Positions 3,334 to 54,615 of a stretch of 64,000 nucleotides of DNA are shown one piece after another. Both the position numbers and the translations under genes were made by a program. The stretch is taken from contig NZ_JARIEA010000045.1 of NCBI RefSeq assembly GCF_029267015.1, forward strand, positions 1-64,000. Reading direction: 5' to 3'. The stretch comes from Sporosarcina ureae (GTDB lineage: Bacteria; Bacillota; Bacilli; Bacillales_A; Planococcaceae). The first letter of the stretch is position 1, and each line of letters starts with the position of its first letter. Below the pieces are notes generated by a model that saw only the letters and a program-made list of their open reading frames with translations, was not told the DNA's origin and did not search any database.

Positions 3334-3749
3334 ACTTTTTCCTCCTCAGGATGCTCCACTAATCGAATCGCCGTCTCTAGTAGTTCAGCCAGACGCTCTT
3401 GCCGACCGAGTAAGTGGATATACCCGAGAACCGCTTCGAATGCCGAGCTATAATTATACGTAGTAACATCAGTGTTTTTAGGGACTGATCCCGCTTTGGC
3501 ATTGCGACCGCGGCGCATTACTGCCAACTCTTCCTCTGTCAGAATTTGTTGGTCTCTCATCGTCAAGATAATGCGTGCTTGCGCTTTCGCAGAGACAAAG
3601 CGTGTAGCCTCCTTATGCAAAATCTGTGGTTTCACACGCCCCATACGCAGTAAATGCTCTCTGACCGCTGTTTCGTATACCGCGTCGCCCATATAAGCAA
3701 GCGCGAGTGCATTGAGTTGTTTGACGTCTATATCACGTAAATTCCCCAC
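3330..3749 (-). CDS. mrnC: Mini-ribonuclease III
   Basis: [23 protein letters not shown] RNase III-like motif; follows cysS. Confidence 0.95.
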
Positions 3750-3753
3750 GCCT

Positions 3754-5154
3754 TTACCCTCTTTTCCAGCGAGTACCTTGCGCTGTATCTTCCAATAAAA
3801 TACCTTGTTCTTTTAGTTGATCTCTAATTTCATCCGAACGTGCAAAATCACGATTTTTTCGCGCATCCAGGCGCTCCTGAATCAACGCATCCACTTCGTC
3901 ATCCACTAATTCCCCCGCGTTTTCAAACGGTAAACCAAGTACATCCATTAATTTATCCAATGTATCAATAAATTGTTGAAGGACGCGACGATCTGTATTT
4001 TTCTCTAGCAAGTAGACGTTAGCTTGCTTGGATAGTTCAAAAATTGAGGCTATCGCATTGGCTGTATTGAAATCATCATCCATTGCCGTTTCAAATGCTT
4101 TGATTTGTTCATTGATTTTATTTAACCAAGGCTCAGAGTCTTCAGCCAGATCTGCCGAGATCGATAGTCGGTGTTGTAAGTTGCTATACGCTGTGCGGAT
4201 ACGTTCCAATCCATTCGCTGCACTCTCCACAAGTTCCTGCGCAAAGTTCACTGGATGACGATAATGCACGGACAGCATGAAGAAACGAAGTACTTTCGGA
4301 TCGACTTGCTTACGGATATCATGCACCAAAATAAAGTTACCTAGTGATTTCGACATCTTTTCGTTATCGATATTAATATAACCATTGTGCATCCAATAGT
4401 TGGCGAAGGTTTTTCCTGTAGCCGCTTCGGACTGCGCAATTTCATTTTCATGATGGGGGAACGCTAAGTCTTGCCCTCCTGCATGAATATCAATCGTCTC
4501 ACCAAGAAGTTGCTTGGCCATAACCGAACATTCGATATGCCAACCCGGACGACCTTTCCCCCACGGACTATCCCATGAAATCTCGCCATCTTTAGCTGAT
4601 TTCCAAAGTGCAAAGTCAAGCGGATCTGTTTTGATCGTATTTTCTTCCACCCGTGCACCAACTTTTAATTCATCGATAGACTGGTGAGAAAGCTTTCCGT
4701 ACCCTTCGAATTTTCGTGTATGGAAGTAGACATCGCCACGAGATTCATAAGCGAATTCTTTATCGATTAGGACTTGAATAAATTCCACAATATCATCAAT
4801 ATGCTCCGTTACACGTGGATGCGCTGTCGCTTCCTCACAGCCAAGAGCACTTACATCTTCATGATACGCTGCGATAAAGCGCTCGGTTAAGTCTCCAACT
4901 TCTTCATTTAATTCATTGGCTGCTTTAATGATCTTATCGTCTACATCCGTGAAGTTTGAAACGTAATTTACTTCATAGCCACGATATTCTAGGTAGCGCC
5001 GAACCGTATCAAATGCAATCACCGGACGCGCGTTTCCAATATGAATATAGTTATAGACGGTCGGTCCACAGACATACATTTTGACCTTTCCCTCTTCTAT
5101 CGGAACAAATTTTTCTTTTTTCCTTGTTAATGTATTATAAAGTTGAATGCTCAT
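3754..5154 (-). CDS. cysS: Cysteinyl-tRNA synthetase
   Basis: [32 protein letters not shown]; start chosen at MSIQLYN, overlapping the cysE 3' end. Confidence 0.97.
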
Positions 5155-5874: not shown

Positions 5875-6135
5875 AAAAAAAGCGCCCCCGTCACTCATGA
5901 TGACAGAGACGCATTAATTGCGTGGTTCCACTCCGCTTGAGAACACATTCGTTCCCCGCTTAATGTCTTTAACGCAGACTATACGTATGGCCTACTAACA
6001 GTTTCGGCTCATCGCTCAAAGGTGCATTTCGATAGTGAACGACTCAGGTCATTTCCAGCCTAGATGACCTTCTCTAGAGAGTATTCATTATCTACTTTCC
6101 TTCTCGACGCTTTTCATATGACGATTTCATATTAG
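5875..6135 (-). promoter_or_regulatory. T-box leader (Cys) upstream of cysE-cysS
   Basis: Reverse complement contains T-box GGAGTGGAACCACGC, a terminator stem ending CGGGGGCGCTTTTTTT, and candidate specifier in GAAATGCACC (UGC = Cys). Confidence 0.9.
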
Positions 6136-18664: not shown

Positions 18665-18830
18665 AATTCCTCACCTTTTCAATTTACTCCTTTAACTTTA
18701 TCATAAATATTGCAATTTCTCTATGTTACCAATCCAGACTATGAACTTCACTGAATGTTCACTTGACGAAGAACAACAAAGCCGCTATGATGTGGTTAGA
18801 ATAATCAAAATAATTGAATAAGAATCGTAT

Positions 18831-18994
18831 CTTATCAAGAGAAGCTGAGGGACTGGCCCGTCGACGCTTCAGCAACCAGCCGTTTAGGCAAGGTGCTACT
18901 TCCAGCAGTCTGTCAAGTTGACACACTGAAAAGATGAGAGGGAACTAGTCATTGAGATTACAAAGCCTTCTAATATACTTGAAGGCTTTTTTTG
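18831..18994 (+). promoter_or_regulatory. SAM-I (S-box) riboswitch with terminator, upstream of yitJ-like/metH operon
   Basis: CTTATCAAGAGAAGCTGAGGGACTGGCCC...CAGCAACC...AAGGTGCTACTTCC...GATGAGAG, then AAAGCCTTC...GAAGGCTTTTTTT. Confidence 0.97.
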
Positions 18995-32915: not shown

Positions 32916-33110
32916 TTGCGATCTACTCCTTTATATCCATTTCATCTGAAAAAGATAAGACTTCTTCAGATAATTATGTAACGTTTAGCATACGGTTATA
33001 CTTGACCACCTAAGCGCAAACACTCATTTTCATACTTGTCAATCTGTTTATTGCAGGATCATTTTATCCTAACCTATCTATATGATATAATTAGCTTGTC
33101 TGATACATAG

Positions 33111-33241
33111 TCACCACTAGGGGTGCCAACATTTGGCTGAGATGCAATTATGCAAACCCTTTGAACCTGATCTAGTACAACCTAGCGGAGGGAAGTGGGT
33201 AGTTTTTATACCCAACCGCCCATCCTAGTATGGGCTTTTTG
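33111..33241 (+). promoter_or_regulatory. TPP riboswitch with terminator
   Basis: CACTAGGGGTGCC...GGCTGAGATGCA...ACCCTTTGAACCTGATCTAGTACAACCTAGCGGAGGGAAGTGG, then CCCATCCTAGTATGGGCTTTTT. Confidence 0.97.
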
Positions 33242-40587: not shown

Positions 40588-40824
40588 AGATAGATCGGGG
40601 CGTGATTAGGTCGTTGCTCGATTAGTTGTTGAGGATTGAAGGTAGTGAGTGCCTGCTTTCTGGACTCGCGCAGGCACGTGGGGGATTGCCTCCAGCCATG
40701 AGCCAACTAGCGGTGGAGCTGCTAGCTGTCTCACGGCCACGGCCGACCCCGCAGTTGTGCCTGCGCTACTGAGTACTTACCAAGTTTGGTTGTGGTTTAT
40801 AGTAGATAAAACCAGTGACTGGGT
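40588..40824. repeat. Structured repeat family 1, copy A
   Basis: Core ACTCGCGCAGGCAC...GTGCCTGCGCTACTGA with nested stem; shared flanks. Confidence 0.9.
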
Positions 40825-40858
40825 GGGACAATTCTAATGTCTTAGCAAAGTCATTAGG

Positions 40859-41080
40859 AGATAGATCAGATCGTTGCTCGACGTTGACTTGTGCAGGGAA
40901 ATTAGTAAAGGTTCTGCTTTTTGAACTCGCGCAGGCACGTGGGGGATTGCCTCCAGCCATGAGCCAGCTGGCGGTGTAGCTGCCAGTTGTCTCATGGCCA
41001 CGGCCTACCCCGCAGTTGTGCCTGCGCTACTGAGTACTTACCAAGTTAGATTGTGGTTTAGAAAAGATGAAGATCAGTGA
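40859..41080. repeat. Structured repeat family 1, copy B
   Basis: Same core, variant inner stem GAGCCAGCTGGC/GCCAGTTGTCTC. Confidence 0.9.
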
Positions 41081-41119
41081 ATCGTGATACCTTTCTTCGG
41101 TGTTGTAAAAGTACGTAAC

Positions 41120-41345
41120 AGATAGATTGGGGCGTTGCTCGAACTTGGCTTGGTTATTGAATGTAGTGAGGGTCATGCTTTGGACTCGCGCAGGCACGTG
41201 GGGGATTGCCTCCAGCCATGAGCCAACTAGCGGTGGAGCTGCTAGCTGGCTCACGGCCACGGCCGACCCCGCAGTTGTGCCTGCGCTACTGAACACTTAC
41301 CAAGTTTGGTTGTGGTTTATAGTAGATAAAACCAGTGACTGGGTT
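41120..41345. repeat. Structured repeat family 1, copy C
   Basis: Core near-identical to copy A. Confidence 0.9.
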
Positions 41346-41369
41346 GTACTAGTTCCTATCCTTGCAAAA

Positions 41370-41530
41370 GAAGAATCCGAACTGCCCTACACATAATCTA
41401 ACGTAGGCGGCTGCCAGTGGTAGGCGGAGTAATGAGACAGCCAGGTGCTCTTCCTGTCTGGCTCATTGCGGAAGCCATCCACCACCGCCGAAGTGGGGCC
41501 AATGACCGCCCCACTTACACTGCCAGTCAA
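41370..41530. repeat. Structured repeat family 2, copy D1
   Basis: agaatccgaactgccctacacataatctaacgtaggcggctg...AATGAGACAGCCAGGTGCTCTTCCTGTCTGGCTCATT...AAGTGGGG...CCCCACTT. Confidence 0.88.
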
Positions 41531-41639
41531 ACTACTACCCTTGCACACAACAAGGAAGAGTAAGGGGTTCGCAAAAACAGCTACCCAACATCGTATCCTA
41601 CTTACTTATGCGAATATATTATCACTACACTCGAAAAAC

Positions 41640-41797
41640 AAGAATCCGAACTGCCCTACACATAATCTAACGTAGGCGGCTGCACGTGGTAGGCGGAGTA
41701 ATGAGACAGCCAGGTGCTCTTCCTGTCTGGCTCATTGCGGAAGCCAGCCACCGCCGCCGAAGTGGGGCCAATGTCCACTCCACTTACATTGCCAGCC
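41640..41797. repeat. Structured repeat family 2, copy D2
   Basis: Near-identical to D1, offset by about 270 bp. Confidence 0.88.
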
Positions 41798-41883
41798 AAA
41801 ACTCCATCATCCAACCCATTTCCCCCTACATTTCGCTGTACTTTCTTTTTATAATCATTCAGAATATAAAACTATAGAAAGGA

Positions 41884-42546
41884 ATGTATGCAGTGCGTGA
41901 ACTATCACTTCGTTTAATATCCGTTTGGCTTATTTGTATTTTATTCACCGGCTTTTTCGCCTATATCGCCCGATCCATTCATCTACATACGATCTCGAGC
42001 TTTGATGAACCTATTATAGATATCATACAAGGCACACAAACTTCGGGTTTGACGTCTGTTATGAAGACATTTACTACAATCGGCTCTACTACTGCAGTCG
42101 CATTGCTCGCTCTACTTACACTTGCCGTTCTTCTATGGAAGAAACATAAAGCACAAGCCGTATTATTCGTTGCGGCAATCGGCGGGACAGGCATTCTCAA
42201 TCAAGTCCTTAAATTCATCTTCAAACGTGAACGTCCTGACTTCGATCGCTTAATAGATATTGGTGGATACAGCTTCCCAAGTGGGCACACGATGATGGCA
42301 TTCAGTCTCTACACAATTCTAGCTTATATCATTTGGCGGAACTTGCGTAATGTGTGGGCACGTACAGGTATTACTATTCTTGCTATTTTTATGATCGTAA
42401 TGATCGCGGTTAGTAGGATTTACCTGGGTGTCCATTTCCCAAGTGATATAGTCGGTGGCATATTAGCTAGTTCAGTCTGGTTGTTCGCATCCATTGCATT
42501 ATATCAGCGTTTACAACACTCACAATTGGGTAAATTACAGACGTAG
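41884..42546 (+). CDS. PAP2-family phosphatase
   Basis: KRERPDFDRL...YSFPSGHTMMAF...SRIYLGVHFPSDIVGG motifs. Confidence 0.93.
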   Translation: MYAVRELSLRLISVWLICILFTGFFAYIARSIHLHTISSFDEPIIDIIQGTQTSGLTSVMKTFTTIGSTTAVALLALLTLAVLLWKKHKAQAVLFVAAIGGTGILNQVLKFIFKRERPDFDRLIDIGGYSFPSGHTMMAFSLYTILAYIIWRNLRNVWARTGITILAIFMIVMIAVSRIYLGVHFPSDIVGGILASSVWLFASIALYQRLQHSQLGKLQT

Positions 42547-54269: not shown

Positions 54270-54615
54270 ATTTGTGTAATTAAATAGAAAAAGCCCTCTG
54301 CAAACAGAGCCAGTTAGCCTGTTGCAGAGGACGATTACGTAACCGCGTTGCCACCTCAAATTGAAGCACCGAAGCACTCCCACTTTATGTGTTTTCACAC
54401 TGCTCTTAACGCGAGCAAACGTCTGTTTTTTGTCAAAACAGCTGCCATAAGTCCATTCACGAACGCTGTGTATCAGTTTCCACCAGCCACTGACTCTCTA
54501 GGAAGCACATGCACTCGCTACTCTTCTTATTCATATCTTTTCACTATTCTCTTCTCTACTAACTGATCTCATCTGCCGAGGACGATTCCGCTACCGAAAC
54601 CTTCTGTCCCTTAGT
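54270..54615 (-). promoter_or_regulatory. T-box leader (Trp) upstream of trpE
   Basis: Reverse complement has AGGTGGCAACGCGG T-box, terminator CCTCTGCAA...TTTGCAGAGGGCTTTTTC, candidate UGG specifier in GTGAATGGACTT. Confidence 0.92.

What the first reader, a model, noticed from the sequence alone, without database searches (positions are those of the whole stretch)
40588..41800. Apparently non-coding array of five large stem-loop repeats in two families between des and a PAP2 gene
Family 1 has three copies (starting ~40588, ~40859, ~41120) and family 2 has two (~41370, ~41640), all at roughly 210-270 bp intervals. The cores are visibly more GC-rich than the surrounding sequence, highly conserved, and capped by long inverted repeats (GCGCAGGCAC/GTGCCTGCGC in family 1; AAGTGGGG/CCCCACTT in family 2). 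I recognise no transposase, RT, Cas or tRNA-like gene in the array, and I could not match it to a known riboswitch, retron, CRISPR or IS end. Candidates are a mobile palindromic element comparable in style to REP/BIME or Bacillus bcr repeats, or a multi-copy structured ncRNA. This is the best candidate in the window for something undescribed.
Basis: partly seen in the sequence, partly recalled or inferred. Interest (0 to 1): 0.75.

Follow-up and report, generated by a model that had tools for sequence, protein, structure and literature searches.

The report
Head-to-head arrays of intergenic palindromic repeats
The stretch is a non-coding array of five copies of one large hairpin-forming DNA repeat, three facing one way and two the other, of a family that recurs dozens of times per genome in Sporosarcina and Planococcus bacteria, is in no library searched here, and appears to be a mobile-type repeat rather than a gene.

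Summary
The array is real: three family-1 and two family-2 units at 40602-41809. The two families are one element in opposite orientations: the reverse complement of family 1 aligns with family 2 over a ~105-nt imperfect hairpin core (29 pairs, 94.9% paired, 17 with two-sided changes). It is non-coding and matches no Rfam family. The host, a Sporosarcina near S. ureae, holds ~35 family-1 and ~46 family-2 matches in ~25 intergenic arrays, in the order F1...F2 wherever both occur (one exception found, in a relative). The family is confined to Planococcaceae (105 of 261 genomes; 20-98 copies in most genomes counted). Array sites are conserved between species, but copies resemble others in the same genome (86%) more than those at the orthologous site (74%): concerted evolution. 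In S. cascadiensis the core lies inside an ISL3-like miniature transposon with 25-bp inverted ends, 8-bp target duplications and a clean empty site. Those ends are absent at the window, and the host has no REP transposase (RAYT). Best reading: REP/BIME-like palindromic intergenic DNA, seeded by transposition, expanded in tandem, homogenised by recombination. Function is unproven. New family of a known kind, with an unusual head-to-head architecture.

The parts
40602..40836 (-). Family-1 unit, copy 1; hairpin core 40665-40771 read on the - strand
   Evidence: profile match; covariance model R1, 95.6 bits; folds z -5.66 on the - strand
40859..41098 (-). Family-1 unit, copy 2; core 40926-41032
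   Evidence: R1 96.0 bits
41115..41355 (-). Family-1 unit, copy 3; core 41185-41291
   Evidence: R1 93.2 bits
41366..41547 (+). Family-2 unit, copy 1; core 41396-41497, followed by a short second hairpin AAGTGGGG/CCCCACTT
   Evidence: R1 95.7 bits; folds z -4.69
41635..41809 (+). Family-2 unit, copy 2, slightly truncated at its 3' end; core 41665-41766
   Evidence: profile positions 2-179; R1 91.6 bits
39386..40432 (-). Fatty-acid desaturase gene, divergent from the array (flank)
   Evidence: ORF; orthologues next to PAP2 in Sporosarcina
41884..42546 (+). PAP2-type phosphatase gene, pointing away from the array (flank)
   Evidence: ORF; orthologues

Best explanation
The array is a local cluster of a Planococcaceae-specific, non-coding, non-autonomous palindromic repeat, working like REP/BIME or MITE-type intergenic repeats. 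The module is a ~105-nt imperfect hairpin with three conserved internal loops. Shown: the modules sit at intergenic sites that are vertically inherited; copy number differs between orthologous arrays; copies of one genome are homogenised across loci; and in S. cascadiensis the module is part of an ISL3-like miniature transposon with target duplications. Inferred: new sites are seeded by a transposase acting in trans, once or rarely; RecA-type recombination between arrays then expands, deletes and converts them; the hairpin is kept because it is the substrate of that movement, or because it is harmless or useful at gene 3' ends as a transcription or recombination boundary.
For: About 35 + 46 matches in ~25 intergenic arrays of the own genome. 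F1 precedes F2 in all 28 arrays of three genomes that hold both, also in S. ureae and others. rc(F1) is homologous to F2: joint alignment and covariation 0.424 against 0.156 +/- 0.012 in shuffles, 0/500; the S. cascadiensis copy L135 matches both profiles in opposite orientations, E 1e-24 and 1.5e-9. Orthologous array sites with both flanks conserved. Concerted evolution for F1: same array 0.906, same genome 0.858, orthologous site in another species 0.744, other site in another species 0.736. Array present in S. ureae but absent in sister strains P2 and P34, with a short scar resembling the F1 left end. Insertion with empty site in S. cascadiensis and perfect 8-bp target duplications at 4 of 8 copies with paired ends, 6-7 of 8 bases in two more. 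Absent from the plasmid and phage collections.
Against: The ISL3-like ends found in S. cascadiensis are not within 7 of 26 mismatches at the window or at any S. ureae-clade or Planococcus locus tested, and no target duplication was detectable at 8 array ends, so the vehicle in this genome is unknown. A modest excess of G-T over A-C pair states on the core strand (37 against 18 columns, p 0.014, counted) would also fit selection on a transcribed strand. Structure conserved across a whole family suggests more than junk.
Confidence: 0.6

Rival explanations
1. A multi-copy structured RNA (sRNA or 3'-UTR element) transcribed from the core strand; the conserved internal loops bind a ligand or protein.
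For: Strong covariation; conserved internal loops; small G-T over A-C excess on one strand.
Against: F1 and F2 lie on opposite strands of the same array; orientation to neighbouring genes is not fixed in solo copies; G-U only 2.3% of standard pairs against 9.9% in six riboswitch or T-box copies from held loci (a small and uneven control); no Rfam match; no promoter or terminator scan was run.
Confidence: 0.17
2. A DNA-level architectural or recombination site (cruciform or ssDNA hairpin bound by a nucleoid, gyrase or repair protein), with the F1-F2 polarity as a functional boundary mark.
For: Vertically conserved sites; in my hand tally of site groups, arrays between co-directional genes face one way about 9 to 1 (p 0.02), with the F2 side at a gene 3' end; G-U-poor pairs.
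Against: Copy number varies from 1 to 98 and some congeners have none; no obvious replichore bias among the copies listed for the complete genomes; arrays can be lost.
Confidence: 0.15
3. Classical REP elements mobilised by a RAYT (Y1) transposase of the host.
For: RAYT-like 200-aa proteins are common in the family (130/261 genomes), with a crude genome-level association (odds ratio 3.2, p 9e-6, not corrected for relatedness).
Against: No Y1 transposase in the own genome; 10 of 25 high-copy Sporosarcina genomes lack it; no core copy at 24 RAYT loci; the core is 105 nt, not 20-40.
Confidence: 0.08

Closest known systems
REP / BIME elements (GTAG-tagged palindromic repeats; Di Nocera et al. 2013, PMC3733652)
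   Same: Palindromic, intergenic, mostly between co-directional or convergent genes, many copies, inverted pairing of units
   Different: Core ~105 nt with internal loops rather than 20-40 bp; tandem 150-290-bp periods in F1(n)-F2(m) order; no RAYT in the host; Firmicutes are not mentioned in that survey
ISL3-family MITEs
   Same: In S. cascadiensis the core lies inside elements with ~25-bp ends and AT-rich 8-bp duplications; 8 bp is the classical ISL3 length (PMC7643977)
   Different: Those ends are not found at the window or in the other species tested; no ISL3 transposase was searched for; the match of the end sequence to ISL3 rests on memory
bcr1 of the Bacillus cereus group, and stem-loop families such as Bhal-1 (Cozzuto et al. 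2008, PMC2267715)
   Same: Firmicute intergenic repeats with a stable stem-loop, tens of copies
MIRU-type tandem intergenic repeats (own knowledge)
   Same: Dispersed intergenic loci with variable numbers of tandem units
   Different: Here the units form long covarying hairpins and switch orientation within the array

Membership tests
REP/BIME (RAYT-associated) | Intergenic palindromic units in many copies, often inverted pairs | tested here: met
REP/BIME (RAYT-associated) | Short (20-40 bp) palindrome | tested here: not met
   Core ~105 nt
REP/BIME (RAYT-associated) | GTAG or CGTC foot | tested here: inconclusive
   GGTAG occurs inside the helix of family 2 and of several relatives, not at an end; not tested for function
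REP/BIME (RAYT-associated) | Cognate RAYT gene in the host, flanked by the repeats | tested here: not met
   No Y1 match in the own genome; 24 RAYT loci without core copies
ISL3-type MITE | Terminal inverted repeats and 8-bp target duplication at the window | tested here: not met
   No end within 7 mismatches in the window or own-genome loci; no duplication
ISL3-type MITE | Same features in the S. cascadiensis copies | tested here: met
   Ends found at 9 of 20 G028 loci, perfect 8-bp duplications at 4 of 8 paired copies, empty site
ISL3-type MITE | ISL3 transposase in the same genome | not tested
Known Rfam RNA | Match to a curated covariance model | tested here: not met
   matches to T-box, TPP and a few weak or low-scoring families only, none at the repeats
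Protein-coding repeat | One frame open across copies with third-position bias | tested here: not met
   One F1 frame is open in 60/63 copies over ~35 codons, but variable columns by codon position are 6, 4 and 7 of 32; F2 core lengths 93-101 nt not kept in frame
bcr repeats | Sequence match to bcr families | not testable with these tools
   No bcr sequences on hand

The most novel reading that the evidence does not exclude
The core is a functional structured element, recognised as single-stranded nucleic acid by a dedicated but unknown host protein. The divergent F1-F2 arrays are conserved chromosomal boundary loci kept by selection and homogenised by gene conversion. The family would belong, with the related-looking 'GACTCC' hairpin repeats found across Bacilli, to one superfamily never described as such.
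Probability: 0.2. Interest if true: 0.75.

Novelty: new variant of a known kind. Interest (0 to 1): 0.5.

Why it matters
An undescribed repeat family present in at least 105 species' genomes, with tens of copies in many of them, a strongly covarying structure, fixed sites and rapid homogenisation would be a clean bacterial system for studying concerted evolution and how palindromic repeats spread without a resident RAYT. It also appears to break draft assemblies of these genomes (about 20 contig ends of the own assembly fall inside the arrays) and is likely to confuse annotation by spurious short ORFs.

Tried and rejected
RAYT as mobiliser: absent in the host, no core copies at RAYT loci. Rfam RNA: none. 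Protein: no codon signal. Plasmid or phage origin: no match. Target duplications and ISL3-like ends at own-genome arrays: none. Homology of the core with the Bacilli-wide 'GACTCC' hairpin (model R2): only a weak partial match of the inner helix (E 0.03-0.7), so suggestive, not shown. Three sequence strings from the GACTCC family gave no paper; searches for Sporosarcina or Planococcus repeats gave none describing these.

Full report
The window carries three family-1 units (40602-40836, 40859-41098, 41115-41355) and two family-2 units (41366-41547, 41635-41809) between a divergent desaturase and a PAP2 gene. Each core folds better than all of its shuffles. Nothing in Rfam matches.

The two families are one. 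The reverse complement of the family-1 core aligns with the family-2 core along its whole length. An intermediate copy in S. cascadiensis (L135:9349-9493) is hit by the family-1 profile in one orientation (E 1e-24) and by the family-2 profile in the other (E 1.5e-9). On 27 sequences from the two families, 29 pairs are 94.9% standard; 17 pairs have changes on both sides; covariation is 0.424 against 0.156 +/- 0.012 in shuffles and at most 0.103 in slid controls. The shuffle control does not remove relatedness; the slid control does. The array is thus a divergent, head-to-head cluster: left units point left, right units point right.

Extent. In the own genome (3.1 Mb, 86 contigs) there are 35 family-1 and 46 family-2 matches in about 25 arrays, and about 20 contig ends fall in them, so the count is a minimum. 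In 28 arrays of three genomes that hold both families, F1 always precedes F2. S. ureae and two more relatives agree; one relative (L246) has the order F1 F1 F2 F1 F2 F2, the only exception seen. A covariance model of the core (R1) finds copies in 105 of 261 genomes of the order, 7 of 19 genera, all in the same family, and outside that family in none of the genomes of a class-wide sample of 350. The named records show that the genus of the window is Sporosarcina, nearest to S. ureae.

History. In my reading, most arrays of G018 and G030 examined lie at sites that also carry an array in the own genome, with conserved flanks. Yet orthologous copies in different species are no more alike (0.744) than non-orthologous ones (0.736), while copies at different sites of one genome are 0.858 and within one array 0.906 alike (family 1; family 2 shows the same). 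This is concerted evolution. At the window's own site S. ureae DSM 2281 and G018 carry arrays of different composition, while strains P2 and P34 have none, only a short stretch that resembles the family-1 left end joined to the sequence right of the array, which I read as a deletion scar.

Movement. At one site the close relative L134 is empty. The element has ~25-bp imperfect inverted ends (GGCTCTTCACCAAAACATGTGCTTGA) and an 8-bp duplication, AATAAAAT. Of eight copies with paired ends, four have perfect 8-bp duplications and two more match at 6-7 of 8 bases. AT-rich 8-bp duplications are classical for ISL3 (PMC7643977); that the end sequence looks ISL3-like is from memory. These ends are absent from the window, the own-genome arrays and Planococcus, so the vehicle there is unknown. 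RAYT is not it in this host: no Y1 transposase, none of 24 RAYT loci carries a core, and 10 of 25 high-copy Sporosarcina genomes lack one.

RNA or DNA? Covariation shows that a folded strand was selected or maintained. G-T pairs make up 2.3% of standard pairs in the copies, against 9.9% in six riboswitch or T-box copies from held loci (control small and uneven). G-T states exceed A-C states on the core strand in 37 against 18 pair columns (p 0.014; counted by hand, copies not independent). The first points to DNA, the second weakly to one selected strand. Gene context: in solo and tandem copies the downstream gene points at the core 33 to 19; in a hand tally of array site groups the co-directional ones face one way about 9 to 1. 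The window's own divergent site is one of the few between two promoters.

Protein coding is excluded as far as these data go: variable columns fall evenly on codon positions (6, 4, 7 of 32) in the one mostly open frame of family 1, and family-2 core lengths do not keep a frame.

Verdict: a new, Planococcaceae-specific family of large palindromic intergenic repeats, REP/BIME- and MITE-like in behaviour, with an unusual head-to-head array layout. Its function is open.

Noticed in passing
L265:2862-2982, L081:6774-6896, L087:7300-7421 and others; not in the window: A second hairpin repeat family (GGCGACTCC...GGTGAGAC...GGCTCACC...) with its own covariation: 77 of 350 genomes of the class, 27 of 134 genera, also in tandem arrays of ~226 bp; it shares the inner TGAGAC/GGCTCA helix with this element.
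   Followed up: partly
L270:2078-2669, L273:2374-3235, L135:9077-9553: Miniature transposons of S. cascadiensis, 477-862 bp, with 25-bp ends and 8-bp target duplications; they carry the core, and the larger ones also the GACTCC hairpin.
   Followed up: partly
window 5902-6116 (-), 54324-54543 (-), 18829-18940 (+), 33109-33210 (+): Two T-box leaders, a SAM and a TPP riboswitch.
   Followed up: no
L210:6190-6795 and orthologues: Mostly single-copy RAYT-like Y1 protein of ~200 aa in many Sporosarcina and relatives, missing from the host genome, not flanked by these repeats.
   Followed up: partly
L114:6461-6587, L113:9824-9926: Copies of the core in G014 with a nested hairpin GGAGGGATGCA...ATCCCTCC inserted in the terminal stem.
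   Followed up: no
L134, L135, L140 between des and PAP2: In outgroup species a ~700-bp spacer that seems to hold an extra short gene stands where the S. ureae clade has the array.
   Followed up: no
L287:2471-3455 and 3614-3834: A seven-copy tandem array of the core directly upstream of a T-box leader in a g37 genome.
   Followed up: no
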